DNA of 64,000 nt from positions 1,507,501-1,571,500 of the forward strand of contig NC_014623.1 of the NCBI RefSeq assembly GCF_000165485.1. The letters are read 5' to 3'. A program made the translations under genes and the position numbers. The first letter of the stretch is position 1. Each line of letters begins with the position of its first letter. Positions 15,201 to 31,338 of the stretch are shown here, in pieces. A model generated the notes under the pieces. That model ran no database searches and was not told the origin of the DNA. It saw only the letters and a program-made list of their open reading frames with translations. The DNA is from Stigmatella aurantiaca DW4/3-1 (GTDB lineage Bacteria; Myxococcota; Myxococcia; Myxococcales; Myxococcaceae).

Positions 15201-16664
15201 CGCCAGGAGGGCGGCCTTGAGCGCGGCGGCGTCCTCGGCCGTGTAGTAGAGGCCTCCGCCCACGTCCGCGGTGTTCTTGAGCAGGTTGCTGTTGATGCCG
15301 AAGCCGACGGTGTACACGTTCACGGTCTGCTGATTGCTGGTGTTCAGCTCTCCCACGACGGGCGGCGTGTTGCGCTGCAGGTCGCTCGTGTAGAGCAGCT
15401 TCGCCACGTCATCGAGCAGGTAGTTGGCGTCATTGTTGGTGTTGCCGGTGTTGTCGTTGCACGGCCGCGAGGGCGGGCAATTGACGGGGCCACCGTTGAT
15501 CGCACGGATGCGGGTGACGACATTGGTTCCGAGGCTGTCGTTGGTGGGCTCACCGTCGGTGATCATGATGATCGATGAGCTCTGGCACCCCCAGCACACC
15601 GTGCGGGTCTCCGAGGTCAAGGCATCGTTCTTGAAGTCGGCGGGATAGGAGTAGCCCGTGAGCGGATTCGCGTTGCCGAAACCAAACCCCCCATCGGTCG
15701 TGTCCCGGTAGACGCCCTGGTGCGAGGTGAAGTAGTAGCCCGCGTTGAGCAAGGAGCGCGCCAGGGGCGTGGAGGTGTTGAAGACCAGCGAGTTGATCTT
15801 CGCGATGTAGTCGGCGCGATCGTCGGCGAAGGCCTCGGGGTTGGAGAGGATCTCCTGGCAGGCGGGATTCATCTTCTGCACGTTCGTCGAGGCCGTCGCG
15901 TTGAAGGTGCTGAAGCCGACGCGCACCCGGCGCAGGTCCTTGATGACCTGCTTGAGCACGGCTTTGGCGGTCACGTACTTGGGCGGGTTGAAGTTGAGGA
16001 AGCGGCCCCAGAGGATGAAGTTCTGGTTGGTGCGCTGGCTGGAGGTGGTGTTGTACACCTTGAAGTAGCCCTTGGTGCTGAGGCACGACAGGCACTTGAC
16101 GTACTGGGCCGCACCCGCGCCGTTGTTCCAGTTGGGCACCTGCTGCTGGCAGGCCGCTTCGCGCGTGTTCCAGGTCGGGGTGGGGTTGCTCTGGTTACCC
16201 CAGAACCCCATGGCGTAGTACTTGTTGTCCTGGAAGAGGTTGTTGAAGCCGGTGTCCGAGCCAATGCCCGTGCCCGGATCCGGAACGGGATACACGGTGG
16301 ACGGGTTCCAGCTGTGGCTGTCGGAGAACGCTTGCAACCGGGGGTTCGTACACCCGTTCACGGTGGCGTCGTAGAACTCCTTGTAGTCACTGTTGATGAT
16401 CTGCGGCAGCTCCTCCATGGAGCCCGAGACGTCGATGATGAAGTGGATGTTGGGTGGCGCGCCATCGGCGCTGAAGAAGCGCTCGTCGCCCGACGGATCA
16501 TTGCCGCGCAGCACATCCTGGATGAGGGAGGTGGTGAGCTGGCAGCAAGCGGGCGAGTCGGGGGTGGTGGTGCCGTCTCCGAGCTTCGCGGAGGCAGCGC
16601 CCGCCACGCCGAGCAGGGCGAGGCCGGTGAAGAGACGGCGCAAATGGGGGGTCCAGGAGTGCAT
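12204..16664 (-). CDS. pilY1: PilY1: vWA-containing pilus tip adhesin/assembly factor
   Basis: The 1486-residue secreted protein starts at an ATG with AAGGAG about 7 nt upstream and has a signal peptide ending near ASA (residues 24-26). A von Willebrand A domain follows with the metal site DVSGS at 78-82 and a later MITDGEP segment. EF-hand-like calcium loops are visible near residue 554 (DLNRDGDCND) and near 637 (DTNNDGKLD). The PilC/PilY1 C-terminal propeller starts near 780 (ILVGSNGGMIHAFHNG). PilY1 proteins cap and prime type IVa pili and act in adhesion or surface sensing, with calcium-dependent function in other bacteria. It is the fifth gene after fimU-pilV-pilW-pilX, 24 bp after pilX. 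Confidence 0.95.
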   Translation of the reverse strand: MHSWTPHLRRLFTGLALLGVAGAASAKLGDGTTTPDSPACCQLTTSLIQDVLRGNDPSGDERFFSADGAPPNIHFIIDVSGSMEELPQIINSDYKEFYDATVNGCTNPRLQAFSDSHSWNPSTVYPVPDPGTGIGSDTGFNNLFQDNKYYAMGFWGNQSNPTPTWNTREAACQQQVPNWNNGAGAAQYVKCLSCLSTKGYFKVYNTTSSQRTNQNFILWGRFLNFNPPKYVTAKAVLKQVIKDLRRVRVGFSTFNATASTNVQKMNPACQEILSNPEAFADDRADYIAKINSLVFNTSTPLARSLLNAGYYFTSHQGVYRDTTDGGFGFGNANPLTGYSYPADFKNDALTSETRTVCWGCQSSSIIMITDGEPTNDSLGTNVVTRIRAINGGPVNCPPSRPCNDNTGNTNNDANYLLDDVAKLLYTSDLQRNTPPVVGELNTSNQQTVNVYTVGFGINSNLLKNTADVGGGLYYTAEDAAALKAALLAIINNVQTRSTSFSAVASSSLQVRSGGATVVPRFKPARNKNSPWQGFLYRFELASEKVLGCIPGTTPPIPGDLNRDGDCNDTHLIDQAGDAVIENEQGDFVKSAAPNVPGEPFWEAGRVLKQPTENPDDPDNPANKTTGWTQRKIFTVIDTNNDGKLDFKDRPIEFHENNAAQLREYLGISENTHECDDLKAQLGLAHLYPDECAALVIKWYRGANVLHSDPARWPYDRPFLLQDIFHSAPVSVDPPISKFFCSFSAQCTQTLFSNVGARNAQYPAQGDDPARDAYDTYAQKAGKRDKIILVGSNGGMIHAFHNGKWESEDPYTGIGTYNAGTGKELWAFVPPDMLPKMRANMGKHAYFSDGTPMVRDVWMDGTGTEVPQRDAKKQWDEYRTIAVVGSGRGGVHRFALDLTTLLAEDFIANPNKVAPTFQKEGVFRWMWPQPCDELSLQVGESFTNYAPTPPPIVPVAVSPAADNELATLSGMAGNPQPDQPLRIANEEARERWVVLFNGGYDPYLSRGRGFAMVDMTSGHTMWSFFHGDTKNRAEHLLYPFAAGITTQDIGEAVKPYQDADTLMDTATVGDFGGQFWVFRFWKPGKWDSASKQIGNWHAARSFRAAPNASAAVVEDVRAPFTTMAINTIQPGTGYMRTFIGTSDSQNLYDRGSVCRLSNPHGCAVQGCTMNNTISIKRGNTLAWQSTAPYTNGHLNTAQAKSIKTNALSACGSVEAKVDWSYSGTCDYNSSGSIRYACSGTSSTWSCTEPQNNWVTINYPDEAQPYPQYYFGFHSYGGTRRFDKTGPSEDPENDQANAFDSAMLTIDDLDPAAAFDAEGNETDTTEVDPAKPGWFILYPQGNERTGNTGTLANGCMIWSSFEPSGTSGAVCSTVGSNIARIYQADFATGRANCAASFFDDATSKWSRFIEFNTVAAAPAFSTRLTMVNGQISLDLPLLAPGLKKVNGDDGSIPAPTVATSDSAVKALYQIELDRKAHDCRHEGRNCDN

Positions 16665-16688
16665 AGGGGCTCCTTGAAGGGGCGAGGG

Positions 16689-17216
16689 CTACAAGCCCAC
16701 CTTGACGAGGAATTCGATCTCGCGCTCGGGGTCGGTGACGCCTGCGTCCGATGCCTCTCGGCACAGGGCGGTGATGCGGTAGGTTTCGGAGAGGGCCGTG
16801 CGGCCCGGGGTGTTGTCGATGCCCATGATCTGGGTCCGGTCCGCCAGGGCGCCGGCCCGCGTCTTGTTGATGTTCTCGACGGAGATGATCTCGGTGCCGG
16901 GCACGCCGCCGTCGGGGACGGCGTTCCTGGCGGAGCCGGTGAAGTGCGAGGTGGAGATGCGCACGCCGTTGACCTCGTCATCCATGCGGACGAACTCCAC
17001 GCTGGAGGGCGTGATGGGCCTCATGCGGGAGACGAACAGGTTGCGTGCCGCCAGCGCGCACGTGGACATGGTGTCCTCCTGCGTCTGGATCTCCGCGGCG
17101 GCACGCTCGGTGCCGGTGAAGGAGATGGCGCCCGCGACGAGCAGCGTGATGAGAACGACGACGATCATGGCGATGACGAGGACCATGCCGCGGGGAGAGT
17201 GTTTGAGGGGTGTCAT
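16689..17216 (-). CDS. pilX: PilX-type minor pilin
   Basis: The 175-residue prepilin-like protein has a short leader ending RG, then MVLVIAMIVVVLITLLVAGA, the hydrophobic N-terminal helix of type IV pilins. There is no Glu at mature position 5, as in PilX/GspK-like tip subunits. ATG 17216 has GGCGG about 8 nt upstream; a TTG at 17222 that overlaps the pilW stop is the alternative. It continues with CALAARNLFVSRMRPITPSS and a Cys-containing C-terminal beta part. It sits between pilW and pilY1, the order known from minor-pilin operons, and should join the priming complex in the inner membrane. Confidence 0.85.
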   Translation of the reverse strand: MTPLKHSPRGMVLVIAMIVVVLITLLVAGAISFTGTERAAAEIQTQEDTMSTCALAARNLFVSRMRPITPSSVEFVRMDDEVNGVRISTSHFTGSARNAVPDGGVPGTEIISVENINKTRAGALADRTQIMGIDNTPGRTALSETYRITALCREASDAGVTDPEREIEFLVKVGL

Positions 17217-17218
17217 GA

Positions 17219-18484
17219 TCAACCGCCGTCTTGGGTGGTGGCGATGAACTGCGAGTTGAGTTGAATGTTCTTGGGGGTGATGGACTCCCGCAGAATCACG
17301 CGGTAGAAGCCGCCCCCTTGGGGGGTGAAATCGCCCGCGTTCGCGGCGACCCCGGTCACGCTCAGGTTCTCGAGCTGACGCCAGGGAACGGTCGTCCCGA
17401 TGGCCTCCCCCTCGTGTGCGAGCATGAGGTTGTCTCCCTGGTGCTGGGGATCCGGATTGGAGCTGCGAGAGACCACGGTGATGCGCAGCTGCCGGATGTT
17501 CACGGGGCTGTCTTCCTCGCGCGCGGGCTTTTCCAGATCATTGAGGACCAGCGTGTACCACTGAGGAATCCTGCGGTCAGGGCCCACCATCTGGGGGGGA
17601 ATCATGGTCTGCCACTGCTCGCCATAGTGGTCTGCCGTGGTGGATTCATTGACGCCCAGCACCCGTGGGATGGTGGTTCCCAGGCTGTTGAGGATGTAGG
17701 CCACCTGAAGCTGTTCGATTCCCTCGGCGACCGGGACGGCGTCGCTGGGTCCGATGGTGCCATCCTCGTCGAGATCGAGTCCCTGATGCATCATGAGGTA
17801 GGGCGTGCGCACGTTGGGGCTGCCGGGCTCATCGAAGGCGGCGACGTAGAAGGCGGCGCGGTTGATCTTCACGATCTGAGCCTTGTCGTAGCAGCCATTC
17901 CCATCCAGGAGGGCTTGCTCGTGGAAGAGCCGTCCGGGCATGGCCGTGGGGGCATTGGGGGCAGCGGTGGGGTCGGTGGTGTCGAGGAGGATCTCCGTGC
18001 TGTTTTCCACCTTCTGGCTCACGGTGACGAAGGCATGGTGCTGAGTGGTGGTGATGTTGCCGTTGTTGCGGCACAGGACCAGGAGGATCTGTCCCCGCTG
18101 CAGCAGCGGGATCGGCGCCGTCACGACCAGCCTGTTGGAGCTGGCTGAGTCCACATCGCGGCGGAACAGCAGATCCCGTGAGTGCACAACGACCGCGTCC
18201 GGGAAGCCGGGCTGGGAGGGGGAGTTCGGATCGGAGGCGTTGAACGAGTCATAAGCGAGGACGGTGCGGTCCGGATCCACGCCGTACCCGGCGGACCGGA
18301 TGTGCCGGCTCATGAAGGACATCGCTTGACGGGCGTTGGACTGGATGGCCCGGCGGCTGGCGTGCGTCTGGTATTGGCGTGCCTGGGAAATGAAGGTGAG
18401 GCTGATGCCGAGCAGCACCACCGAGCCGACGGCTCCGCCAACGAGTAACTCAATCAGGGTGAATCCACGGCGGGAGGGGCGCAT
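17219..18484 (-). CDS. pilW: PilW-type minor pilin
   Basis: The 421-residue protein has the classic type III signal MRPSRRGFTLIELLVGGAVGS, with cleavage after Gly7 and Glu at mature position 5. The long C-terminal domain (about 380 residues) is the usual size of PilW/GspJ-like minor pilins. It contains SNARQAMSFMSRHIRSAGYG, a segment common to PilW proteins, and EQLQVAYIL. The stop is inside the beginning of pilX and the start is 3 bp after the pilV stop, which indicates one transcript and translational coupling. Confidence 0.92.
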   Translation of the reverse strand: MRPSRRGFTLIELLVGGAVGSVVLLGISLTFISQARQYQTHASRRAIQSNARQAMSFMSRHIRSAGYGVDPDRTVLAYDSFNASDPNSPSQPGFPDAVVVHSRDLLFRRDVDSASSNRLVVTAPIPLLQRGQILLVLCRNNGNITTTQHHAFVTVSQKVENSTEILLDTTDPTAAPNAPTAMPGRLFHEQALLDGNGCYDKAQIVKINRAAFYVAAFDEPGSPNVRTPYLMMHQGLDLDEDGTIGPSDAVPVAEGIEQLQVAYILNSLGTTIPRVLGVNESTTADHYGEQWQTMIPPQMVGPDRRIPQWYTLVLNDLEKPAREEDSPVNIRQLRITVVSRSSNPDPQHQGDNLMLAHEGEAIGTTVPWRQLENLSVTGVAANAGDFTPQGGGFYRVILRESITPKNIQLNSQFIATTQDGG

Positions 18485-18487
18485 GGC

Positions 18488-19099
18488 TCAAATCTCCAGG
18501 TCATTGCATTGGGTGCCAGAGCAGACTTGATCTGGGACGTATTTGATGGTCCAGAAATTGATCTGGCGGAAGCCGCCGGTGGTGGGGAAGCGGACCATGA
18601 TGAGGATGCGCAGGGAGTCCTTCTTGCCGCGCTCCGACTCGATCTCGCCCGTGTTGGGCACGAGCACCGAGCGCCAGGCGACCGTGTAGAACTCCTCCTG
18701 GGTCTGCGCGTTCAGCCCCTCGGCGACCCGGATGGCATCCGCCGCACTGATCAACGGGCGCTCGCCCGCGGGGGCGATGACATTCTTCAGGAAGATGAGC
18801 TTCGTCGTGTTCTCCATGTCATCGAAGCCACCGGGTTGGCCAAAGGTGTCCAGGGACATCTCGCTGTCGACGAAGGCCGCATGTTGGTAAGGCAGACGCT
18901 CGAAGGCGTCCGCCAGATCGCGGGCGATGCGACTCGCGGTGGTTTGATGGAGGGCCAGGTTGTTTTGGCCGCTGGCCAGCACGTTCATCTGCATCACGCC
19001 AAGGATGCCGACGACGAAGACCAGCATGGCGGCCATGGCTTCGATGATCGTGGTGCCGCGAGGGGAAGGGCGGAAGGCGCGCATGGCGGAGGTTCTCAT
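18488..19099 (-). CDS. pilV: PilV-type minor pilin
   Basis: The 203-residue product has a prepilin leader with cleavage after Gly (PSPRG/TTIIEAMAAMLVFVVGILGV) and Glu at mature position 5. TTIIEAMAA...GILG is typical for PilV/GspI. The domain after the helix has QTTASRIARDLADAFERLPY. The ATG overlaps the fimU stop by 4 bp. Two cysteines lie at the extreme C-terminus (CSGTQC), a possible disulfide. Confidence 0.9.
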   Translation of the reverse strand: MRTSAMRAFRPSPRGTTIIEAMAAMLVFVVGILGVMQMNVLASGQNNLALHQTTASRIARDLADAFERLPYQHAAFVDSEMSLDTFGQPGGFDDMENTTKLIFLKNVIAPAGERPLISAADAIRVAEGLNAQTQEEFYTVAWRSVLVPNTGEIESERGKKDSLRILIMVRFPTTGGFRQINFWTIKYVPDQVCSGTQCNDLEI

Positions 19100-19872
19100 G
19101 GCGAGAAGACCCGGGTGACACCTGCAGGAGTGGAAATGACGAGCATCTTGTAGCCGGTGTCCTTGCCCTCCGCGGTGTTGCTCATGAAGGAGAGCAGGCC
19201 CCCGGGCAACCGCGTGGGGTTGGGGCCGCCCGTCATCATCGTCACCGTGCCGTCGGCGTTGAAGCGGATGACGCCGTACTCGGCTCCGCCTCCGTTGATG
19301 CAGAAGGTGCAGCCCGCGAGCAGCTCAGTGGTCGGCTCATTGAGCGCGGGGGGATTGAACGCGGTGGTGGGGATGATTGCCGAGAAGGGGGCGGGCAGGG
19401 TCCGGATGACGCCGTCCGCATCGGGATCCAGGAAGTTGATGCCGCCTTCATCGGGGCCAGAGCCTGAAGCAAGCGTGATGGTGTCGCGCTCGATGGCCCT
19501 CGTGTTGGTGACCACCCCCGTATCGGGGTCGGTCACGTTGAAGGCCAGCGCGGCCCCGAGCCCGTTGGTGAAATCGAGGTTATCCCAGGTGATGTTGCCG
19601 TCGTCGGGGATCTGCCGCTCGACGAGCGACGCGCGAAGGCGCGTCTGGTTGAGGCGGTAGATGACGAGGTAATGAGGTGTTCCGTGGCTGATGGCGCGAA
19701 GCTGGCCCACGGAGATGAGGGCGGAGAGATCGAACAGCGTGTTGCTCACGCGCGCGCGGCCCATGCCGTAGAAAATGGCTGTGGACGCCAGCGCCGCCAT
19801 GACGCCAAGGATGGCAACCACGGTCAGCACTTCGATCATCGTGAAACCGCGGCTTCGGGGTCGAATCGGCAA
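19096..19872 (-). CDS. fimU: FimU/GspH-type minor pilin, first gene of the operon
   Basis: The start is placed at TTG 19872 because a perfect AGGAGG (19884-19879) lies 6 nt upstream. An in-frame TTG at 19905 would put the ribosome site inside the gene. From there the product (258 aa) starts MPIRPRSRGFTMIEVLTVVA, a textbook prepilin signal with Gly/Phe cleavage and Glu5. The remainder matches GspH/FimU: LFDLSALISVGQLRAISHG, then a long variable beta domain with CTFCING. FimU links the minor-pilin complex to the major pilin in other species. The 250-bp gap upstream should hold the operon promoter. Confidence 0.88.
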   Translation of the reverse strand: MPIRPRSRGFTMIEVLTVVAILGVMAALASTAIFYGMGRARVSNTLFDLSALISVGQLRAISHGTPHYLVIYRLNQTRLRASLVERQIPDDGNITWDNLDFTNGLGAALAFNVTDPDTGVVTNTRAIERDTITLASGSGPDEGGINFLDPDADGVIRTLPAPFSAIIPTTAFNPPALNEPTTELLAGCTFCINGGGAEYGVIRFNADGTVTMMTGGPNPTRLPGGLLSFMSNTAEGKDTGYKMLVISTPAGVTRVFSP

Positions 19873-19878
19873 GGCAGG

Positions 19879-19884
19879 CCTCCT
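19879..19884 (-). promoter_or_regulatory. Strong ribosome binding site that decides the fimU start
   Basis: On the minus strand AGGAGG is followed by CCTGCC and then TTG. The perfect anti-Shine-Dalgarno match and 6-nt spacing identify an unusual TTG start for fimU. Confidence 0.75.
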
Positions 19885-19993
19885 GCGATGCCGCGAGTAT
19901 TGCAAAGTCCAGCCCTCGCCCGGGAAGGCGGCAAGCCCTGAGAATCACAGCGCTTGAGCCCTGGGCTGCTGTCAGCCCGCACCGTTCTGCGTG

Positions 19994-20121: not shown

Positions 20122-20754
20122 ATGAGGCCTTCCTCCCTCCGCGCCAGTTCGGGTGCCCTGCGGCGCCTTCTTCTCGCCCTGCTGGGAGGGCTGACGTGTG
20201 GGGTGTTTGGGCTGGCGTGGCGTGTGGACCGCTTCGGCCAACAGGAGCGGGCGGCCCCAGCGGATGTGCTGGTGGTGTTGGGGGCCCGGGTGCTCCCGGG
20301 CGGCGTTCCCTCGGGGGCGTTGCTCGCCCGGGTGGAGAAGGCCGTGGCGCTCTACCATCAAGGGCTGGCGTCCCGGCTCCTGTTCTCCGGAGGGGTGGGG
20401 GTGAATCCTCCCTCCGAGGCGCAGGTCATGCGCGCGCTGGCGGTGCGGCTCGGGGTCCCAGCGGAGGCGTGCTTCTTGGAGGAGCAGAGCCACTCCACGG
20501 AGCAGAATGCCCGCTTCAGCGCCCAGGTGTTGCGCGCCCTGGGGGCCGAGCGTGTGGTGGTGGTCTCGGATCCCTATCACCTGCTGCGGGCGCGTCAGTA
20601 CTTCCGGCTGGAGGGGTGGGAGGTGGCCACCAGCCCCGCGCTCCTTACCGAGCGCAACCTCCACGCGGCGGATCGCTTCTACTGGACGGTGCGAGAGGCC
20701 TTCGCCTTGCTCCTGCATCCCCGGGTGCTGCTGGCCCGGAGCCCCTCACGCTGA
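20122..20754 (+). CDS. YdcF/SanA-like DUF218 membrane protein
   Basis: The ATG at 20122 has GGAGGGG immediately upstream and begins a 210-residue protein with one N-terminal membrane helix (RRLLLALLGGLTCGVFGLAW). The DUF218 domain follows with its typical segments: DVLVVLGARVL, RVEKAVALYHQG, LLFSGG, EEQSHSTEQNARFS and VVVVSDPYHLLRARQYF. Family members (YdcF, SanA, ElyC) act in envelope or undecaprenyl-carrier homeostasis, with unproven chemistry. The family's conserved Glu and Ser/His positions look present. The stop overlaps the MarR gene by 9 bp, convergent. Confidence 0.88.
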   Translation: MRPSSLRASSGALRRLLLALLGGLTCGVFGLAWRVDRFGQQERAAPADVLVVLGARVLPGGVPSGALLARVEKAVALYHQGLASRLLFSGGVGVNPPSEAQVMRALAVRLGVPAEACFLEEQSHSTEQNARFSAQVLRALGAERVVVVSDPYHLLRARQYFRLEGWEVATSPALLTERNLHAADRFYWTVREAFALLLHPRVLLARSPSR

Positions 20755-21246
20755 CTCCTCTTCCGGGGCCTGCGGCTCCGGGGACGTGTCGAGCCTGCGG
20801 ACGAGCTTCTCGATGATCCGGAACAAGGCCTTGCGGTCGCTGCCGTCCAGCATCTCCAGCAACTGGCTCAGGGCTTGGTTCACCAGTTGGTGAAGCTGCT
20901 GGAAGGTTTGCTGGCCAGAGCCGGTCAGGCGGCAGCGGACGACCCGGCGATCCTCGTGGACCCGTTCGCGCTGAAGGTGGCCCTCGCGCTCGAGGCGATC
21001 GACGACCCCCGTCACCGTCTTCTCGGTGATGCCCAGCCGCCGGGCCAGCTCCCCCATGGTCAGTGGGCCGTCCTGGCCCAGCCACAGCAGGGCATGGACC
21101 TGAGGCGGCGTGAACTGGAACTGCTCGCAGAGACCCGCGATGGGATCACGGAGCGAACGGCGGCGGCCCAGCCTGTACATCAGCTGTAAGAGCCGCGACA
21201 CTTCGCTGGCAGGGGCTTCCTCTGGATCCGGGATATTCCGTGACAC
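20746..21246 (-). CDS. MarR-family transcriptional regulator
   Basis: The 166-residue protein has the MarR winged helix: FTPPQVHALLWLGQDGPLTM, then ELARRLGITEKTVTGVVDRL as the recognition helix, and the wing REGHLQRERVHEDRRVVRCRLT. The flanking helices (residues 15-40 and 115-150) would form the dimer interface. It is divergent from the type III PKS operon, with 229 bp between starts. MarR proteins usually repress neighbouring genes and release DNA on binding phenolic or lipophilic ligands, which would suit feedback by a phenolic lipid (inference). A palindrome at 21360-21375 is a candidate site. Confidence 0.9.
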   Translation of the reverse strand: MSRNIPDPEEAPASEVSRLLQLMYRLGRRRSLRDPIAGLCEQFQFTPPQVHALLWLGQDGPLTMGELARRLGITEKTVTGVVDRLEREGHLQRERVHEDRRVVRCRLTGSGQQTFQQLHQLVNQALSQLLEMLDGSDRKALFRIIEKLVRRLDTSPEPQAPEEESA

Positions 21247-21475: not shown

Positions 21476-22561
21476 ATGCACAGCGCACCCTCCTTGGCCT
21501 CAGTTCCTTTCCTCCGAGCGGTTGGGCGCGGCCTTCCGCCCCATTACGCCCAACAGGAGCAGCTCATCGGGTCCTTGCGCGCCTTGTGGGCCCAGAAGCA
21601 CTTCAACCTCGAGCGGCTGGAGGATCTTCACCGCGCGGTGAGTGTGTCGGGCCGCTTTCTGGCCCTGCCCCTCGAGGAGTACCCCGCGCTGGCCACCTTC
21701 CAGCAGCGCAACGATGCGTGGATTCGTTGTGCGGCGGAGCTGGGCGAGAAGGTGGTGGCCCAGGCCTTGGAGAAGGCGGGGCTCGCCCCCCAGGACATCG
21801 ACCACATCTTCTTCGTGACGGTGACGGGGCTGGCCACGCCCAGCATCGAGGCGCGGTTGGCCAACCAGCTGGGGTTTCGCTCCGACATCAAACGCACCCC
21901 CATTTTTGGCTTGGGGTGCGTGGCCGGTGCGGCGGGGCTGGCCCGGGCGGCCGACTACCTGCGGGCCTTTCCTGGCCACACGGCGGTGGTGCTCTCCGTG
22001 GAGCTGTGCTCGCTGACGTTGCAGCGGGAGGACCTGTCCATTCCCAACATCATTGCCTCGGGCCTCTTCGGGGATGGGGCCGCGTGTGTGGTGTTGCAGG
22101 GGGCAGAGGCGGGTCCCCGGCGCCCCTCTCCCCGCGTGGTGGCCTCGCGGTCGGTGTTCTACCCCGACACCGAGCGCATCATGGGGTGGGACATCGTCGA
22201 TACGGGCTTCAAGGTGGTGCTGTCGGCCAAGGTGCCGCAGCTCGTGAAAGAGCACATCCGCGGCGATGTGGATTCGTTCCTCGCCGCGCACCGGCTGAGC
22301 CGCGCCGACATCCGGCATTGGATCGCCCATACCGGGGGGCCCAAGGTGCTCCAAGCGTTCGAGGAGGGTTTGGAGCTGCCCGAGGGGGCTATTGCGCGTT
22401 CCTGGGCGTCGTTGAAGGAGGTGGGCAATCTGTCCTCCGCCTCGGTTCTCTTCGTGCTGGGGGAGACGCTGGAGTCCCAGGCGCCTCGCGAGGGCGACTG
22501 GGGGGTGGTGATGGCGATGGGGCCCGGGTTCTGCTCCGAACTGGTGCTGCTGCGATGGTGA
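21476..22561 (+). CDS. Type III polyketide synthase (chalcone synthase family)
   Basis: The 361-residue protein carries the complete type III PKS catalytic triad: Cys148 in FGLGCVAGAAG, His285 in IAHTGGPK and Asn318 in GNLSSAS. Other landmarks are FVTVTGLATPS, LFGDGAA and VMAMGPGF. Such homodimers extend an acyl starter with malonyl-CoA and cyclise the chain. It is first in an operon with a methyltransferase, ACP, FAAL and FAD hydroxylase, where each gene overlaps the next by a few bases. That setting resembles the Streptomyces srsABC phenolic-lipid operon and suggests a long-chain acyl starter giving an alkylresorcinol, alkylpyrone or quinone precursor. The exact product cannot be read from sequence. 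Confidence 0.93.
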   Translation: MHSAPSLASVPFLRAVGRGLPPHYAQQEQLIGSLRALWAQKHFNLERLEDLHRAVSVSGRFLALPLEEYPALATFQQRNDAWIRCAAELGEKVVAQALEKAGLAPQDIDHIFFVTVTGLATPSIEARLANQLGFRSDIKRTPIFGLGCVAGAAGLARAADYLRAFPGHTAVVLSVELCSLTLQREDLSIPNIIASGLFGDGAACVVLQGAEAGPRRPSPRVVASRSVFYPDTERIMGWDIVDTGFKVVLSAKVPQLVKEHIRGDVDSFLAAHRLSRADIRHWIAHTGGPKVLQAFEEGLELPEGAIARSWASLKEVGNLSSASVLFVLGETLESQAPREGDWGVVMAMGPGFCSELVLLRW

Positions 22562-23130
22562 GCCCCTCGCAGGCGGTGTTTCTGGGCTACATGGGGGCGC
22601 TCGCCGCCGAGCGGCTCGTTGAGCTGGTGCTCTCGCGGCGGAATGCCGCCCGCGCGTTTGCGCAGGGGGGGCTCGAGCGGGGGCAAGGCCACTACCGGGT
22701 GATGGTGGTCTTCCACTCGCTCTTTCTCGTGGCGTGCGTGGCGGAGGTCTTCGTGCTGCGACGGCCTTTTCCGGGCGCGCTGGGGTGGGCCGCATTGGGG
22801 GCCGCGGTGATGGCCCAGGCGTTGCGCTACTGGGCCATCGCGACGCTCGGCGAGCGGTGGAACTCTCGCATCATCGTCATCCCCGGGCTGCCGCCCGTGA
22901 CAGGGGGGCCGTACCGCTTTCTGCGCCACCCCAACTATGTGGCGGTGGTGCTGGAGTTGCTCGCGGTGCCGCTCATCCACGGGGCGTGGTTGACGGCCCT
23001 GGTGTTCACCGTGGGCAACGCCGCGCTGCTCTATGTGCGCATCCGAGCGGAGGAGCAGGCGCTTGGAGAGGTGTATGCGCAAGCGTTCGTTCACCATCCC
23101 CGCTTCATCCCAGAGGTGCGCCGTGGTTGA
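22555..23130 (+). CDS. ICMT-like membrane methyltransferase (SrsB-type)
   Basis: The 191-residue protein starts inside the end of the PKS gene (ATGGTGA, 7-bp overlap). It has about four to five membrane helices (residues 5-22, 50-66, 75-95, 140-165) and the isoprenylcysteine-methyltransferase signature RHPNYVAVVLELLAVPL with the later RIRAEEQALGEVY. In the family these residues bind S-adenosylmethionine at the membrane face. In srsABC-like operons the equivalent enzyme O-methylates a phenolic lipid, so an alkylated phenol or quinol is the probable substrate here. Confidence 0.87.
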   Translation: MVSPSQAVFLGYMGALAAERLVELVLSRRNAARAFAQGGLERGQGHYRVMVVFHSLFLVACVAEVFVLRRPFPGALGWAALGAAVMAQALRYWAIATLGERWNSRIIVIPGLPPVTGGPYRFLRHPNYVAVVLELLAVPLIHGAWLTALVFTVGNAALLYVRIRAEEQALGEVYAQAFVHHPRFIPEVRRG

Positions 23131-23389
23131 GCTGGAACAGGAAGTCGTGGTGGAGATCCGCCGCATCGCCATCGAGGAGCTGGAGTGGAAGGGGTCGGTG
23201 GAGCCCAACCACGATCTGCTGAAGGACTTGCAGCTCGACAGCTTGGGGCTGACGGTGATGGCCGTGGGGCTGGAGAACCGCTTCCGGGTGAAGCTGTCCG
23301 AGGAGGACGCGGCGGGCCTTCACACCGTGGCGGATCTTGCCCGGCTGGTGGCCGTCCGGGTCAGCTCGGCGGGAGAGGTGCGGACATGA
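23123..23389 (+). CDS. Acyl carrier protein
   Basis: The GTG at 23123 (with AGAGG 6-8 nt before it, inside the end of the methyltransferase gene) gives an 88-residue ACP. The phosphopantetheine site is Ser40 in LQLDSLGL. Three-helix ACP features follow (VMAVGLENRFRVKLSEEDA, HTVADLARLV). An ATG earlier in the same frame would add 30 Arg-rich residues and is rejected. Placed directly before a FAAL, it is the likely acceptor of the activated fatty acid. The stop overlaps the FAAL start (ATGA). Confidence 0.9.
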   Translation: MVELEQEVVVEIRRIAIEELEWKGSVEPNHDLLKDLQLDSLGLTVMAVGLENRFRVKLSEEDAAGLHTVADLARLVAVRVSSAGEVRT

Positions 23390-25143
23390 AGGGGCCTGCC
23401 TTGTCCCCGGTGAAGTACGCCACCCTCCCGGAGATGCTCGAGGCCACGTCGCGCACGGCGCTGGGGCTCACCTTCGTGGATGCCTCCGAGCAGGAGGTTT
23501 CGCTGTCCTGGGCGGAAGTGTACCGCCGGGCCCGGCAGACGGCCGCGGGGCTGCAGCGCGTGGGGGTGAAGCCCGGGGAGGCCGTGGCCATCCTCTTGCC
23601 GACGTCTCCGGGGTTCATGGATGCCTTCTTCGGGGTGCTGCTGGCCGGTGCGGTGCCCGTGCCGCTCTATCCGCCGGTGCGGCTGGGACGGATGGAGGAA
23701 TACCACCGCGCCACGGCGCGAATGCTGAGCGTCTCGGAGGCGGTGCTGGTGCTCACCGAGACGCGGTTGAAGCTGCTTCTGGGCGCCTCGGTGGAAGCGG
23801 CGCGTCCGAGGTTCGGTTGCCGGACGGTGGAGGAGCTCTCTCGCGGTGACGGGGCGCTGTCCGTGGCCGTGTCTCCCCAGTCCCTGGGCCTCATCCAGTT
23901 CTCCTCGGGATCGACCGTTGCCCCCAAGCCGGTGGTGCTCACCCAGGCGGCCTTGATGGCGCAGATGGCCGCGCTCGAAGCCTCCCTTCCTTCGCCTTCA
24001 GGAGGCGTGCCCGTGGGGGTGTCGTGGCTGCCGCTGTACCACGACATGGGGCTCATCGGGTGCTTGCTCTCGGCACTGTATTACCCGGGCAACCTGGTGC
24101 TGCTGCCACCGGAGGTCTTTCTCGCGCGGCCCGCGCTGTGGCTCCGTGCGCTTTCGCGCCACAAGGGGTTCGTCTCTCCCGCACCCAACTTCGCCTATGG
24201 CCTGTGCCTCAAGCGGGTGAAGGATGAGGAACTGCAAGGGGTGGACCTGTCGGGCTGGAAGCATGCGCTCAATGGGGCGGAGCCTGTCTCTGCCGAGACG
24301 CTGCGCCGCTTCGTCTCGCGCTTCTCCCGGTACGGCTTCTCCGGGGAGGCGCTGCGGCCGGTCTACGGGTTGTCCGAGGCGGCCTTGGCCGTCACCTTTC
24401 CGCCCAGTGGGAGGGGGCTGCGCTCACGGAGCGTGGACGCGGGCGTGCTGGCCCGGGAGGGCCGTGCGGTCGGTGGAGCGCGCGAACTGGTGTCCGTGGG
24501 CAGTCCGGTCCCGGGCTTCGAGGTGGTGGTTCGGAATGAACTCGGCGTCGAGTTGCCCGAACTGCGGACCGGGCGTGTCTATGCGCGGGGCCCCTCCTTG
24601 ATGAAGGGATACCACGGTGATGGGGACGGCACCGCGCGGGTCCTGGGGGCCGATGGATGGCTGGACACAGGGGACCTGGGGTTCGTGGCGGAGGGCGAGC
24701 TGTACCTCACCGGGCGTGCGAAGGATCTGGTCATCATCCGGGGCGCGAACCATGCGCCTCAGGCCTTCGAGGAGTGCGTGCAGACCGTGGAGGGAGTGCG
24801 CTTGGGATGTGCGGTGGCGCTCGGCTTCACCCCCGAGGGCAGCGAGGACGAGGCATTGCTCATCCTCGCGGAGCGCGCGGGTTCGCCCGACGACGACGGG
24901 CAGGTGGAGGCGCAGGTGAGTGCCGCCATCGTGCAGGGCACGGGAATCCGGCCGCACACGGTGCGCCTGCTGAAGCCGGGGACGTTGCCGCGCACCTCCA
25001 GCGGCAAGCTGCGCCGGGGCGAGGCGCTGCGGCAGTTCCTGGCAGGGGAGCTGCTGCCTCCGAAGCGGGTGGGGGCGGTGAGCATCATGGTGGAGATGGC
25101 GAAGGGCGCGTTGGCGCTGGCCCGGACGGGGCGGGAGGGATGA
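23386..25143 (+). CDS. Fatty-acyl-AMP ligase (FAAL)
   Basis: The 585-residue adenylating enzyme has an ATP loop LIQFSSGSTVAPKPVVL near 168-184, the FAAL-like segment FAYGLCLKRVKDEELQG...LNGAEPV, YGLSEAALAVTFPP, and GWLDTGDLGFVAEGELYLTGR near 423-443. Unlike acyl-CoA ligases, FAALs hand the acyl-adenylate to an ACP or PKS. The ACP gene directly upstream (4-bp overlap) supports this. The catalytic C-terminal Lys is expected in RTSSGKLRRGEAL. It would supply the starter chain for the type III PKS. A CoA-ligase activity cannot be excluded without structural modelling of the FAAL insertion. Confidence 0.92.
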   Translation: MKGPALSPVKYATLPEMLEATSRTALGLTFVDASEQEVSLSWAEVYRRARQTAAGLQRVGVKPGEAVAILLPTSPGFMDAFFGVLLAGAVPVPLYPPVRLGRMEEYHRATARMLSVSEAVLVLTETRLKLLLGASVEAARPRFGCRTVEELSRGDGALSVAVSPQSLGLIQFSSGSTVAPKPVVLTQAALMAQMAALEASLPSPSGGVPVGVSWLPLYHDMGLIGCLLSALYYPGNLVLLPPEVFLARPALWLRALSRHKGFVSPAPNFAYGLCLKRVKDEELQGVDLSGWKHALNGAEPVSAETLRRFVSRFSRYGFSGEALRPVYGLSEAALAVTFPPSGRGLRSRSVDAGVLAREGRAVGGARELVSVGSPVPGFEVVVRNELGVELPELRTGRVYARGPSLMKGYHGDGDGTARVLGADGWLDTGDLGFVAEGELYLTGRAKDLVIIRGANHAPQAFEECVQTVEGVRLGCAVALGFTPEGSEDEALLILAERAGSPDDDGQVEAQVSAAIVQGTGIRPHTVRLLKPGTLPRTSSGKLRRGEALRQFLAGELLPPKRVGAVSIMVEMAKGALALARTGREG

Positions 25144-26234
25144 AGACATACGACGTGGCCATCTCCGGAGGTGGCCCCGCGGGACTGGCGGTGGCCATCA
25201 CCGCGGCCCAGCGGGGGTTGGCCACGGTGGTGTTGGAGCGGGCCTCCTGGCCCGTGGACAAGGCCTGCGGGGAGGGTTTGATGCCCGCGGGGCTGGACGT
25301 GCTGGAGCGGCTGGGCGCACGGACCCTGCTGGATGGCCGGGGATGTTCGCCCTTCGTGGGGATCCGCTATGTCCAGGAGGACGGCAGCGTGGCGGAGGGG
25401 TTGTTGCCGGCTCCTGGGGGGCTGGGCGTGCGGCGGGTGGCGCTGGCCACCGCGCTGGGCGAGCGGGCCCGCGCGGTGGGGGTGGAGCTTCGTGAGCGGA
25501 CGGTGGTGCAGAGCCATCGGCGCACGGGGAGGGGCCTGGAGCTGGAGACCTCCGAGGGGCTCGTCTCGGCACGCTTCCTCGTGGCGGCGGATGGGTTGAG
25601 TTCTCCCCTGCGGCGTGCGGAAGGGCTGGAGGTGGAGGTGACGGGGCCCCGGCGCTTCGGGTTGCGCCAGCACTTCAAGGTGGTGCCTTGGACGCCCTTC
25701 GTGGAAGTGCATTTTGCATCGGGGGTGGAGGCTTATGTGACGCCCGCGGGGTCCGAGCGGGTAGGGCTTGCGTTCCTGTGGGAGAACGGTTCGTTGGAGC
25801 ACGTCTCCTTCGAGGAGCTGCTCTCGCGCTTTCCCGCGCTCGCGGAGCGGCTTGGCTCAGCGGAGCCGGACTCGAAGGTTCGGGGCGCGGGACCCCTGGA
25901 GCGCTCGGCTCGGGCGCGGGTGGCGGACCGCTTTGCGCTGGTGGGTGATGCGGCGGGCTACGTGGACGCGGTGACAGGAGAGGGGCTCTCCCTGGCCTTC
26001 ACGTGCGCGGAGGCGCTGGGCCAACTCCTGCCGGAGGCGTTGGTGAAGGGGGCCGCGCGTGAGACGTTGCTTCCCTATGAGCGCACCTTTCAGCGCGCCT
26101 TCCGCAAGTATGCATGGATGGCGCGGGCGCTGCTGATGCTCGCGCGGCGCCCCCGACTGCGCAGGCCCGTGGTGCGCGGACTGGGCCGCTCGCCGTGGCT
26201 GTTCGAGCACATCCTCGGCTTCGCGGTGAAGTAG
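25140..26234 (+). CDS. FAD-dependent monooxygenase/hydroxylase (geranylgeranyl-reductase-like fold)
   Basis: The 364-residue flavoprotein starts in the FAAL stop (ATGA). Visible FAD motifs are SGGGPAGLAVAI (residues 9-20) with VVLERASWPVDKACGEGLMPAG, and the second FAD site ALVGDAAGYVDAVTGEGL near 266-283. The CGEGLMP segment is typical of the geranylgeranyl reductase/PHBH superfamily. As the last gene of the operon it corresponds to SrsC in srsABC and would hydroxylate the alkylated ring, allowing quinone formation. Reduction of a double bond is an alternative activity of this fold. Confidence 0.87.
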   Translation: MKTYDVAISGGGPAGLAVAITAAQRGLATVVLERASWPVDKACGEGLMPAGLDVLERLGARTLLDGRGCSPFVGIRYVQEDGSVAEGLLPAPGGLGVRRVALATALGERARAVGVELRERTVVQSHRRTGRGLELETSEGLVSARFLVAADGLSSPLRRAEGLEVEVTGPRRFGLRQHFKVVPWTPFVEVHFASGVEAYVTPAGSERVGLAFLWENGSLEHVSFEELLSRFPALAERLGSAEPDSKVRGAGPLERSARARVADRFALVGDAAGYVDAVTGEGLSLAFTCAEALGQLLPEALVKGAARETLLPYERTFQRAFRKYAWMARALLMLARRPRLRRPVVRGLGRSPWLFEHILGFAVK

Positions 26235-26271: not shown

Positions 26272-26346
26272 CTGAGGGTAGTATGGAGCCCAGCATTCCG
26301 CGGAAGGTCGAGATTGGAACACCCGCCTAGGTCAGGTTCGGAAAGC

Positions 26347-28371
26347 ATGCGCGGTTCCTTGGCTCATGCGCGAGCGTGGTTTCGCGTGCAAGTAGGGCAA
26401 TTTGGAAAGACCAGCGACCAAGAAAAGATTGGTCAGATTGCAGAGGGCGTAGCGGCAAGCGGATTTGCGACTCAGTACACGGAACAGTTTCGGACGTGGT
26501 CAGAGTCGTTAGGGATTTTGGCACAAACCCTGTCCATGTTGACCGCCAAGCACGCCCCAGCGGCTGAATGGACTTTGTTGTTAGAATACCCGATTCCACG
26601 CCGACAGAAACGGATTGATACGGTCATTCTGGCCGGATCTGTGATTCTGGTTATAGAGTTTAAGGTGGGAGCGAAGCTCTTTGCCCGGTCAGACATGTGG
26701 CAGGTCGAGGACTATGCGTTGGACCTGCGCGATTTTCATGAGGCCAGCCGTAACCGGCTGATTGTTCCTATCCTGGTAGCGACGGATGCACCTGGCCCTC
26801 TGGGGGAGAACTCCTGGGATGGCAGTTTTAAAGTGCATAGGGCAAACCGGGAGACATTGCCGCTCGTCATATTGGAGGTCGTGCAGCGGACCGCTGGCCC
26901 GGTTTCACGGTCCATCGATCCAGCGTATTGGGAGGCAGCTTCCTATCGTCCCACGCCAACTATTGTTGAGGCGGCTCAACATCTTTTTGCTGGGAACACG
27001 GTCCGGAATCTCTCTCATGCGTATGCTGATAACCTCACGACAACGGTGGATGCGCTTGCTGCCGAGGTGCGTGCTGCCAAAGAGAAATCTTCGCGGACTG
27101 TCTGTTTTGTAACCGGTGTGCCAGGGGCTGGCAAGACACTGGCGGGACTTGCTGCTGTGCATGATCCTTCTGTGTCAGACGGGACGGAGGGACAAGCTGC
27201 TTTCATGTCGGGCAATGGACCTCTGGTCCGAATACTGCGTGAGGCGATCGTCCGGAACCGGCTTCAGCGTGGAGGGCGCCGGGGTGAGCTTGAGCGGCAG
27301 TCCGAATTGCTCATCCAAAATGTTCACGAGTTCATCGAAGAGTATGGCGTCCAACGTCGAGATGGTTTCCCTCATGAACACGTCATCGTCTTCGACGAGG
27401 CCCAGCGGGCTTGGCATGCGGACAAGGTCCGTACCCGGCATAAGGAAGTCCAGAAGTCCGAACCTGCAATGGTCTTGGAGAGCATGGCCAGGGTACCTAA
27501 TTGGTGCGTCGTCATCGCACTCGTTGGGGGCGGACAAGAGATTCATAGTGGTGAAGCAGGCTTAGAAGAGTGGGGCCGTGCTCTTCAGGAGTCCCCCATC
27601 CCATGGCGGGTGGTGGTCTCGCCTGAGGTATTGTCTGGAGGAACTGCTGTTGCGCAACGCTTCTTATTTGACGCGGCGCCTTCCCCGCACTTGCATGTCG
27701 TTCCTGCGCCCAGCATGCATCTTTCGGTCAGTGTCCGAAGTCCCCGGGCGCTGCACATCGCGGAATGGGTGAACGCGGTGCTGGCTCTGGATGAGAAGCG
27801 GGCCCGCGATGCGATACAAGAAATTTCCGGGTTTCGAGTAGCGCTCACGAGAGACCTGTCCATTGCGCGCGCTTGGCTTAGAGATTCTTCTCGAGACGAG
27901 CGTCGGCCAGGGCTGTTGGCAAGTTCAGGAAGCCTTCGACATCGCGCATACGGGTTAGAACTAACCCCGGCCTTTCTTGATGCATATCCAGTTGAGAACT
28001 GGTTTCTGGATGATGCGAAGGACATTCGGTCATCGCATTGTTTGGAAGTTGCGATGACCGAGTTTAAGTGCCAAGGGTTGGAGTTGGACTTTGTGGGTTT
28101 GTGTTGGGGAGATGATCTCACACTCCAGGAGTCCCACATGGGGTGGGACATGCGTGCCTTTCAGGGCAATGGCTGGAAGCAAGTGAAGAAAGAAATCTCC
28201 CGGCAGTACCTGCTGAACAAGTACCGGGTCTTGCTGACCCGGGCTCGTGAGGGACTGGTCATCTGGGTGCCGCCTGGAAGTTCGAAGGATCCGACAAGGG
28301 ACCCTTCGAGGCTTGATCGAACTGCCGCTTTTCTAGAGCGCTGTGGGCTGCCTCTTTTGCAGCCCGGTTAG
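26347..28371 (+). CDS. PD-(D/E)XK nuclease fused to a DUF2075/SF1-type NTPase
   Basis: The start at ATG 26347 has GGAAAG just upstream; an in-frame TTG at 26314 is weaker. The product has 674 residues. The N-terminus carries a PD-(D/E)XK-like signature, Asp near residue 89 and EFK near 103 (RRQKRIDTV...VILVIEFKVG). A Walker A loop (TGVPGAGKT, near 256), a DEAQ box (VIVFDEAQRAW, near 348) and a helicase-like motif VI (NKYRVLLTRAREGLVIW) belong to the DUF2075/Schlafen-like NTPase family. Such nuclease-helicase proteins occur in defence islands. Base composition is clearly lower in G/C than the neighbours, and an insertion element starts 3 bases after the stop. Horizontal origin and a defence role are inferred. 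Confidence 0.85.
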   Translation: MRGSLAHARAWFRVQVGQFGKTSDQEKIGQIAEGVAASGFATQYTEQFRTWSESLGILAQTLSMLTAKHAPAAEWTLLLEYPIPRRQKRIDTVILAGSVILVIEFKVGAKLFARSDMWQVEDYALDLRDFHEASRNRLIVPILVATDAPGPLGENSWDGSFKVHRANRETLPLVILEVVQRTAGPVSRSIDPAYWEAASYRPTPTIVEAAQHLFAGNTVRNLSHAYADNLTTTVDALAAEVRAAKEKSSRTVCFVTGVPGAGKTLAGLAAVHDPSVSDGTEGQAAFMSGNGPLVRILREAIVRNRLQRGGRRGELERQSELLIQNVHEFIEEYGVQRRDGFPHEHVIVFDEAQRAWHADKVRTRHKEVQKSEPAMVLESMARVPNWCVVIALVGGGQEIHSGEAGLEEWGRALQESPIPWRVVVSPEVLSGGTAVAQRFLFDAAPSPHLHVVPAPSMHLSVSVRSPRALHIAEWVNAVLALDEKRARDAIQEISGFRVALTRDLSIARAWLRDSSRDERRPGLLASSGSLRHRAYGLELTPAFLDAYPVENWFLDDAKDIRSSHCLEVAMTEFKCQGLELDFVGLCWGDDLTLQESHMGWDMRAFQGNGWKQVKKEISRQYLLNKYRVLLTRAREGLVIWVPPGSSKDPTRDPSRLDRTAAFLERCGLPLLQPG

Positions 28372-29830: not shown

Positions 29831-31216
29831 TCAAGATGTTGAATCAATGCGCCCGGAGGCGAGGACTCGAGCCGTGGCGACGTGCTGACGTGCAGTGCGT
29901 CCTGAGACGTAGCCCTTCTTCGTTTTCTTTTTGGGCCCCCGCGGGTGCTTGCGCAGACGCTTGGGCTGAGCGTGCTGCGCAATGCGGATGAGGGTTCGAC
30001 TGAGTTGGAGAGGAGACTGCTCGTCGAAGGCGGTCCAAACGTCATCCCCCACAGCAATCATCCTCCCGCCATAGGTGGCCTGCACTTCGGTAGCAACGAA
30101 GAAGGGGGAAAGTTCAATGCCCTCGGCCTTGGCCTCGGGGTGCGCTGCCTCGACTGCCGCCTGGATGACCGCCAGGATGTTGTAGGCCACCACGGCAGTC
30201 CCGAATGCGAGCAGCGCCGCTCGTGGATGACCCAGCGTCCGCACCTCACTATGGAGCGCAGACTCCAAGCTCTGAAACATGCCTTCGATGCTCCACCGTT
30301 TGCGGTACAAACACGCTACCTTCTCGGCGGAGAGCTTTTCTTTGGGAGCGTTGGTGAGCAGACGAATGAGGGGCTCCCCCTCCTCGGTGGGCTCATCCAG
30401 CTGAAGTTCGATGCGACGCAGCGTGAGCAGGCGCCCACCGTCGTCCTCCACCTGGACGGGCTGCTCGAAGACAACGCCCGTTTCCACACGGCCCACCCTC
30501 TTTCGCTTCCCCACCTCTGTAGGGCTGGGCGTGCGTCCATGCTCTCGGATGATGAAGGCGGCGTGCCTGTCCTCCAGGCCAAAGACAATCCGAGTCGTGG
30601 AGAAGTTCCTATCGGCTATCCACAAGTCGCCCTGCTGGGCGTGCTCCAGCACAGCAGCCACCAGCGTCCGCTCCTGAGCGTGTGCGTCCTCACACGGCAC
30701 CACGTCCACCACCAAGCCCTGCTCCGGGGCGTACACTACCAGCGAGTGTCCGGGCAGGGCGGCGCCTCGAAACTCACGCAGCGGCTTGAGCCTTTTCTCG
30801 CTGGCAGGCAGATGATTGCCGTCTATGACTCGGACGCGATAGCCCTCTGCCCAGGGCTTCTCCCCTGTCCTCAGCGGCTGGACTACAGGCTCCAGTCGTT
30901 GGGCGCTGCCACGGACCAGAGCTCGCACCAAGTCCGGCTCCATTCGATTCACCTTCTCGTAGAGCGCAGCGATCGAGGTGCCTCCCTCTGTGGCCTTGGC
31001 GCCCGCATGCAGCGAGGGTCGCAGCCCCATGGCCACCACGGACATCAACTCCACCACGGTGGAGAACAGCAACTCCCGGGTGTACTGCCTCTTCCGATGC
31101 GCCTCGAACAGTGAGTCCATCCACTCCGCGCTGACGGCACGCTGCAGCACCAGCCGGGCCATGACACTGACCGGGCTGTTTTTCACGAACCGCTCAAGGA
31201 TTGCATCGAAGGCCAT
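29831..31216 (-). CDS. IS4-family DDE transposase
   Basis: The ATG at 31216 (GGAGAGG upstream; GTG one codon earlier is possible) gives 461 residues, normal for IS4. The catalytic residues are visible: first Asp in RVRVIDGNHLP, second Asp in LWIADRNFST, and Glu in YRKRWSIEGMFQSLE, which matches the Y-(2)-R-(3)-E-(6)-K-like IS4 signature in form. No frameshift or internal stop was found, so the enzyme appears intact. The C-terminus is basic (KHPRGPKKKTKKG). Confidence 0.93.
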   Translation of the reverse strand: MAFDAILERFVKNSPVSVMARLVLQRAVSAEWMDSLFEAHRKRQYTRELLFSTVVELMSVVAMGLRPSLHAGAKATEGGTSIAALYEKVNRMEPDLVRALVRGSAQRLEPVVQPLRTGEKPWAEGYRVRVIDGNHLPASEKRLKPLREFRGAALPGHSLVVYAPEQGLVVDVVPCEDAHAQERTLVAAVLEHAQQGDLWIADRNFSTTRIVFGLEDRHAAFIIREHGRTPSPTEVGKRKRVGRVETGVVFEQPVQVEDDGGRLLTLRRIELQLDEPTEEGEPLIRLLTNAPKEKLSAEKVACLYRKRWSIEGMFQSLESALHSEVRTLGHPRAALLAFGTAVVAYNILAVIQAAVEAAHPEAKAEGIELSPFFVATEVQATYGGRMIAVGDDVWTAFDEQSPLQLSRTLIRIAQHAQPKRLRKHPRGPKKKTKKGYVSGRTARQHVATARVLASGRIDSTS

Positions 31217-31338
31217 CACACCTCTCCAGTCGCAGAGGCCTCCTTGATTCGCCGCAGCAGTCCTCTATTCCCTCGGGCGCGCGCAGGGCGCTCATTTCCT
31301 GCTTTCTCTTGGTTTATAGACACCTTGAAAGGGGTGCC

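What the first reader, a model, noticed from the sequence alone, without database searches (positions are those of the whole stretch)
21476..26234. FAAL-ACP-fed type III PKS operon for a probable phenolic lipid or alkylquinone
Five genes overlap end to end: type III PKS with intact Cys148/His285/Asn318, ICMT-like methyltransferase, ACP (Ser40), fatty-acyl-AMP ligase, FAD hydroxylase. PKS, methyltransferase and hydroxylase correspond to the known Streptomyces srsABC phenolic-lipid enzymes. Here a dedicated FAAL and ACP are added, so the acyl starter would come from an ACP rather than CoA. FAAL-ACP-type III PKS combinations are known in cyanobacterial alkylresorcinol-type pathways, but this five-gene combination with tailoring enzymes in a myxobacterium may be undescribed.
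Basis: partly seen in the sequence, partly recalled or inferred. Interest (0 to 1): 0.8.

Follow-up and report, generated by a model that had tools for sequence, protein, structure and literature searches.

The report
Known myxobacterial phenolic-lipid gene operon
Five overlapping genes in this soil bacterium encode an assembly line that loads a fatty acid onto a carrier protein and turns it into an oily phenol; a matching gene set has already been worked on in the relative Myxococcus xanthus, so the find is real but ordinary.

Summary
PKS, ICMT-like methyltransferase, ACP, FAAL and FAD enzyme overlap by 4-8 bases, with the named catalytic residues in place. The functional reading is mostly right: the PKS is nearest to Pks11 and splits from THNS, PKS18 and plant types. 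It carries the Trp reported for resorcinol-forming PKSs, and the ligase has a FAAL-type insertion. The claim that the combination may be undescribed is wrong. Hayashi et al. [quoted passage not shown] Another paper draws that cluster as PKS, methyltransferase, AMP-dependent synthetase and monooxygenase. A 2025 survey lists the conserved type III PKS cluster, labelled alkylpyrone, in Stigmatella and six other genera. The same five-gene order is in 63 of 80 class-level loci that I fetched. The product in this strain is untested: alkylresorcylic acid, a tailored phenol or quinone, or alkylpyrone. Remaining interest: why the pathway is so widely kept, and why some lineages lack both tailoring genes.

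The parts
21476..22561 (+). type III polyketide synthase, FtpA/Pks11/SrsA-like; Cys148-His285-Asn318, Trp238
22558..23130 (+). ICMT-like methyltransferase (a role like SrsB is inferred), GTG start
23123..23389 (+). stand-alone acyl carrier protein, phosphopantetheine site Ser40, GTG start
23386..25143 (+). fatty acyl-AMP ligase (FAAL) with FAAL-type insertion
25140..26234 (+). FAD enzyme with the fold of aromatic hydroxylases, flavin halogenases and geranylgeranyl reductases; probable phenol hydroxylase
20746..21246 (-). divergent MarR-family regulator; similar gene found in only 5 of 80 related loci (about 3 kb upstream of the PKS examined), so perhaps a local regulator and not part of the conserved pathway

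Best explanation
This is the counterpart, in a probably Stigmatella myxobacterium, of the Myxococcus xanthus FtpA/FAAL (ftp) operon. The FAAL adenylates a long-chain fatty acid and loads it on the ACP. The type III PKS takes the acyl group, extends it with malonyl- or methylmalonyl-CoA units and closes an alkylresorcylic-acid-type ring. The ICMT-like methyltransferase and the FAD enzyme then tailor it, by methylation (perhaps decarboxylative, as for SrsB) and hydroxylation, to a methylated phenolic lipid or alkylquinone. Shown here: gene content, order, overlaps, catalytic residues, PKS grouping, FAAL insertion, conservation. In print for the M. xanthus relative (seen through citing papers): FAAL involvement, alkylresorcylic acid, oxidation to alkylquinones. 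Inferred: the same chemistry in this strain, the tailoring order, the final product. The orthology alone I hold at about 0.9; the figure below is for the whole chemistry and was lowered on checking, because the active-site Trp is also present in PKS18-like paralogues and FtpA is said to use acyl-CoA starters.
For: Five overlapping ORFs with the right families and residues. Same five-gene order in 63 of 80 class-level loci, FAAL beside the PKS in 77 of 80. Only type III PKS of this genome. PKS nearest to Pks11 among solved chains and split from THNS/PKS18/plant types with SH-aLRT 96. Trp at position 238 in all 147 loci that cover it, of 148, and in Pks11, but not in CylI, 1u0m or PKS18; Trp there is reported for ArsB, FtpA, SrsA, PKS10 and PKS11. 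FAAL-type insertion. Literature: FtpA, FAAL and alkylresorcylic acid, alkylquinones from FtpA.
Against: No product is known for this strain. Hayashi 2011 and Hug 2019 could not be read. Surveys label the conserved cluster alkylpyrone. The Trp is also in the four PKS18-like paralogues and in Pks11, which the PDB names an alpha-pyrone enzyme, so it does not prove the ring type. PMC5916927 says that FtpA uses long-chain acyl-CoA starters, so the ACP need not be the only donor. The FAD enzyme's best fold matches are halogenases. 13 of 80 loci lack an MT hit and 10 an FAD hit near the PKS.
Confidence: 0.7

Rival explanations
1. The operon mainly makes alkylpyrones (alkylpyrone-407/393-like), and MT/FAD act on a pyrone or on a side product.
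For: PMC12766979 assigns the conserved cluster to alkylpyrone BGC0001831 with 20-63% similarity and lists Stigmatella. The FAAL review lists alkylpyrone-407/393 as FAAL products, C18:0. Pks11 is named an alpha-pyrone enzyme in the PDB.
Against: The expressed alkylpyrone cluster came from Cystobacterineae strain MCy9487, not from this operon. FtpA is linked to alkylresorcylic acid. Trp238 is the residue reported for resorcinol formers. MT and FAD are both present here.
Confidence: 0.22
2. The FAD enzyme is a phenol halogenase, so the product is a chlorinated phenolic lipid.
For: Top Foldseek matches are halogenases, among them PltM with phloroglucinol bound (TM by query 0.79-0.81).
Against: Equally high TM to hydroxylases (PnpA 0.82, 3-hydroxybenzoate 6-hydroxylase 0.78). 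The protein has no lysine between residues 42 and 179 and no WxWxIP motif (sequence); both are halogenase hallmarks that I recall, not from a call.
Confidence: 0.05
3. The PKS is a THNS-like or short-chain enzyme fed by CoA, and FAAL/ACP serve another pathway.
For: FtpA is said to use acyl-CoA starters, so CoA feeding is possible in principle; nothing supports a short chain.
Against: PKS split from THNS. FAAL beside the PKS in 77 of 80 loci. Gene overlaps of 4-8 bases.
Confidence: 0.03

Closest known systems
Myxococcus xanthus ftp system (FtpA type III PKS with FAAL; alkylresorcylic acid; Hayashi et al. 2011)
   Same: Type III PKS (stilbene synthase), methyltransferase, AMP-dependent synthetase and monooxygenase are named in the M. 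xanthus DZF1 cluster (figure legend of PMC5006271). FAAL involvement and alkylresorcylic acid are in the 2011 title.
   Different: Different genus; PKS 72-77% identical to the g6 loci; one g6 genome, G041, had no PKS match. Product here untested.
Streptomyces griseus srsABC and mycobacterial pks10 three-gene operons (phenolic lipids, polyketide quinones)
   Same: Lentzea, Saccharothrix and Actinophytocola PKS-MT-FAD loci are in the same large clade.
   Different: No FAAL or ACP hit in those actinobacterial loci. SrsA itself was not in the tree.
Alkylpyrone-407/393 cluster of Cystobacterineae strain MCy9487 (Hug et al. 2019)
   Same: Type III PKS in a myxobacterium; listed as a FAAL product; surveys lump the conserved cluster with it.
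   Different: It was picked by a pentapeptide-repeat resistance gene; a simple motif scan without a positive control found none in this window or the 80 loci.
Cylindrocyclophane cyl pathway (CylA FAAL, ACP, CylI)
   Same: A stand-alone FAAL and ACP feed a pathway with a type III PKS.
   Different: A type I PKS extends the chain in between. CylI is more distant and lacks the Trp.
Cyanobacterial/planctomycetal hidABC-type operons
   Same: Type III PKS, methyltransferase and FAD oxidoreductase in one operon, giving alkylresorcinols.
   Different: Order MT-FAD-PKS; described as a three-gene operon, no FAAL or ACP named in the passages seen.

Membership tests
ftp-type FAAL/ACP-fed type III PKS operon (M. 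xanthus) | type III PKS with intact Cys-His-Asn | tested here: met
   C148, H285, N318; Cys in 148 of 148 loci, His and Asn in 147, the fragment L070 not covering them
ftp-type FAAL/ACP-fed type III PKS operon (M. xanthus) | adjacent FAAL with FAAL-type insertion | tested here: met
   NCBIfam FAAL model best but below its cut-off
ftp-type FAAL/ACP-fed type III PKS operon (M. xanthus) | stand-alone ACP with attachment serine in the operon | tested here: met
   Ser40, PP-binding 37.6 bits against a cut-off of 20.8
ftp-type FAAL/ACP-fed type III PKS operon (M. xanthus) | order PKS-MT-ACP-FAAL-FAD shared with relatives | tested here: met
   63 of 80 loci; M. xanthus itself seen only in a figure legend that does not name the ACP
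ftp-type FAAL/ACP-fed type III PKS operon (M. xanthus) | acyl-ACP accepted by the PKS, alkylresorcylic acid formed | not testable with these tools
   needs enzymes and mass spectrometry
resorcinol-forming type III PKS (SrsA/ArsB/FtpA type) | Trp at the site reported for ArsB and MMAR_2474 (Trp230) | tested here: met
   W238; that it is the printed site is inferred through the Pks11 alignment; not exclusive, since PKS18-like paralogues have it too
THNS-type PKS | groups with THNS in a tree | tested here: not met
   one THNS reference only, a partial chain on a long branch
flavin-dependent halogenase (FAD enzyme) | catalytic Lys after the FAD motif and WxWxIP (recalled motifs) | tested here: not met
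   no Lys between residues 42 and 179, no WxWxIP (read from the sequence)
srsC-like phenol hydroxylase (FAD enzyme) | hydroxylates the alkylresorcinol ring | not testable with these tools
   fold compatible

The most novel reading that the evidence does not exclude
The pathway is a near-core trait of Myxococcia that makes an ACP-primed polyketide quinone or membrane phenol with a physiological role (electron carrier, or spore/cell-envelope lipid). At least two lineages have dropped the methyltransferase and FAD genes together, keep PKS-ACP-FAAL, and so make a different, untailored product. The myxobacterial function is unknown and would be directly testable.
Probability: 0.25. Interest if true: 0.45.

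Novelty: already known. Interest (0 to 1): 0.15.

Why it matters
It stops a published system being reported as new, and it questions a loose label: the conserved myxobacterial cluster that surveys call alkylpyrone fits, by gene content and the active-site Trp, at least as well with the FtpA alkylresorcylic-acid system. The wide conservation (113 of 145 class genomes have such a PKS, own genome included) makes its unknown physiological role a fair question.

Tried and rejected
Rejected: THNS/short-chain PKS; halogenase for the FAD enzyme; a CoA ligase instead of a FAAL; MarR as a conserved part (5 of 80 loci); a pentapeptide-repeat self-resistance gene nearby (simple motif scan without a positive control, none in the window or the 80 loci).

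Led nowhere: independent-pairs tests of joint change of MT with FAD, FAAL with FAD and MT with FAAL were not significant (median p 0.25, 0.25 and 0.5; too few pairs). The promoter/terminator scan was no better than shuffles (0 against 0.2 and 3 against 3.5). A paper search for M. xanthus locus tags and ftp gene names gave mainly unrelated hits. Hayashi 2011, Hug 2019, the mycobacterial quinone paper and the SrsB paper are not held.

Limits: the tree used 134 of 159 rows (24 near-duplicate Myxococcia rows and the fragment L070 left out), a quick search and a simple model; I set THNS, PKS18, the brown-alga PKS, 2-pyrone synthase and the four paralogues as outgroup, and the tool warned that long branches meet. 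SrsA, ArsB and germicidin synthase were not in it. The named set (68 loci) and the unnamed set (80 loci) overlap: several rows are identical, so counts over both are not of independent genomes. Of the 112 other genomes with a PKS match I fetched 80, chosen by hand, mostly the better-scoring matches, not at random; 32 were not fetched. Contig ends can hide genes.

Full report
Observation. The five genes are present at the stated coordinates on the + strand: type III PKS 21476-22561, ICMT-like methyltransferase 22558-23130, ACP 23123-23389, FAAL 23386-25143, FAD enzyme 25140-26234. They overlap by 4, 8, 4 and 4 bases. Pfam assignments of all five are above cut-off. No NCBIfam model reached its own cut-off: best were DpgA (192.7 of 425 bits) for the PKS, fatty acyl-AMP ligase (449.5 of 600) for the ligase and the geranylgeranyl reductase superfamily (125.3 of 158.8) for the FAD enzyme.

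Genome. The window lies in a single-contig genome of 10,260,756 bases. From memory that is the size of Stigmatella aurantiaca DW4/3-1; no call names it. The operon's PKS is its only type III PKS: PF00195 finds one place, and the other hits of the PKS protein search score 21-28 bits.

Distribution. Of 145 genomes drawn from the class, 113 (own included) have a PKS match at E <= 1e-20. I fetched the surroundings of 80 of the other 112. The order PKS-MT-ACP-FAAL-FAD is present in 63 of 80, and one more has it with the FAAL hit in two pieces. In some of these the FAD gene lies apart, up to about 1.6 kb after the FAAL. FAAL lies by the PKS in 77 of 80: the 64 just named, 5 that lack only MT, 7 that lack MT and FAD, and one with PKS, MT, ACP and FAAL without FAD. 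The last three show PKS-MT-FAD, PKS-MT and the PKS alone. Among the 68 named loci of the genome collection, the FAAL is downstream in 23, absent in 36 and not judgeable in 9. Named loci with hits to all five genes in order include Corallococcus (L006, L009, L010, L012, L013), Citreicoccus inhibens (L011), an Anaeromyxobacter MAG (L014) and an Acidobacteria MAG (L020); the ACP was missed in others such as L007. Sorangium cellulosum So ce26 and Lentzea, Saccharothrix and Actinophytocola have PKS-MT-FAD without a FAAL hit. The two sets overlap.

PKS class. The best solved relative is M. tuberculosis Pks11 (330 bits), then CylI (205) and 1u0m (166; called THNS in PMC5916927). In a quick tree of 134 rows the Pks11 chain joins the actinobacterial PKS-MT-FAD loci (SH-aLRT 99), and the window's group lies in the same large clade. 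The branch that splits THNS, PKS18, the brown-alga enzyme, 2-pyrone synthase and four myxobacterial paralogues from the other 126 rows has SH-aLRT 96; I chose these eight as outgroup. Position 238 is Trp in the window, in Pks11 and in all 147 loci that cover it (148 examined), Leu in CylI and PKS18, Tyr in 1u0m; the four PKS18-like paralogues have Trp too. PMC5916927 says that Trp at this site of ArsB is essential for resorcinol products and is conserved in FtpA, SrsA, PKS10 and PKS11 (passages). That the sites correspond is my inference through the alignment.

FAAL and ACP. The 18 best solved matches of the ligase are FAALs, FadD-type ligases or loading domains by name (303 bits for 3pbk); the first 4-coumarate-CoA ligase follows with 118 bits. 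Aligned with homologues of its own genome, it carries the insertion of about 20 residues seen in nine of the ten best FAAL-like paralogues (L165 has a shortened one) and also in L166; the eight CoA-ligase-like ones, L167-L174, lack it or have a much shorter one. Its nearest paralogue in the genome is 39% identical, whereas the FAALs of counterpart operons are 44-90% identical, so the ligase travels with the operon.

FAD enzyme. An AlphaFold2 model (20-row alignment, mean pLDDT 89.9) matches flavin halogenases best by E-value and aromatic hydroxylases about as well by TM-score (PltM 0.79-0.81, PnpA 0.82, 3-hydroxybenzoate 6-hydroxylase 0.78). The halogenase hallmarks I recall, a catalytic Lys and WxWxIP, are not in the sequence. 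Hydroxylase is the better guess.

What is already in print. Hayashi et al. [quoted passage not shown] I saw the title in the reference lists of PMC10896814, PMC5916927, PMC8460268 and PMC5006271; the paper is not held. PMC10896814 (passages) says that M. xanthus oxidises FtpA's alkylresorcinols to alkylquinones. PMC5916927 (passages) says that FtpA uses malonyl- and methylmalonyl-CoA with long-chain acyl-CoA starters. [quoted passage not shown] xanthus DZF1: stilbene synthase, methyltransferase, AMP-dependent synthetase, monooxygenase. PMC8460268 (passages) shows acyl transfer by a M. xanthus FAAL-ACP pair, not stated there to be this one. PMC12766979 (passages, sections 7 and 11) lists a conserved type III PKS cluster, labelled alkylpyrone, in seven genera including Stigmatella. 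PMC11837247 (passages) lists alkylpyrone-407/393 as FAAL products, citing Hug 2019. PMC9231227 (passages) says that Hug's cluster came from Cystobacterineae strain MCy9487 and was expressed in M. xanthus. PMC9684338 and PMC12211065 (passages) report alkylpyrone-like clusters in Myxococcus and Pyxidicoccus genomes. So a FAAL-ACP-type III PKS operon with tailoring genes in a myxobacterium is not new. A search for Stigmatella aurantiaca with type III polyketide listed 14 papers; by title and start of abstract only the conserved-cluster survey touches this, so the product in this strain may be untested.

Mechanism and verdict. FAAL makes acyl-AMP and loads the ACP; the PKS extends and cyclises to alkylresorcylic acid; MT and FAD tailor towards a methylated phenol or quinone (inferred from srsABC and FtpA). 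The rival ring type, alkylpyrone, keeps about a fifth of the probability, and acyl-CoA may also serve as starter. Interest is low because the system is known. What stays open is its role, and the joint absence of MT and FAD: L079-L081 form one group of the tree, and L118, L121, L122 and L126 lie in another, though the independent-pairs test for MT and FAD was not significant.

Noticed in passing
L118, L121, L122, L126 (genus code g10): Convergent to PKS-ACP-FAAL lies a second FAAL (34-36%) and a second type III PKS (30-31%). For L118 its best solved relatives are 7cb3 (a chalcone/stilbene-synthase-like protein) and PKS18. A survey speaks of a gene duplication in Archangium; whether g10 is Archangium is not known, and at this identity it looks like a different PKS class rather than a recent duplicate.
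   Followed up: partly
L079-L081 and L118, L121, L122, L126: Methyltransferase and FAD genes are both missing next to the PKS in two separate parts of the tree, while PKS-ACP-FAAL is kept.
   Followed up: partly
window 26314-28371 (+): Directly downstream lies a lower-GC stretch (about 56-59%) with a Schlafen group 3 helicase-domain gene, followed by a GntR regulator and, on the other strand, a DDE transposase (29831-31219): possibly acquired DNA.
   Followed up: partly
window 12204-19905 (-): A run of reverse-strand genes; two have N-terminal methylation motifs, one of them a PilW similarity below its cut-off, and two (one of 1486 residues) have no Pfam match: perhaps a minor-pilin cluster.
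   Followed up: no
whole genome G000: Eleven further FAAL-like stretches above 150 bits, six of them in open frames above 1000 residues, as in lipopeptide/polyketide assembly lines.
   Followed up: no
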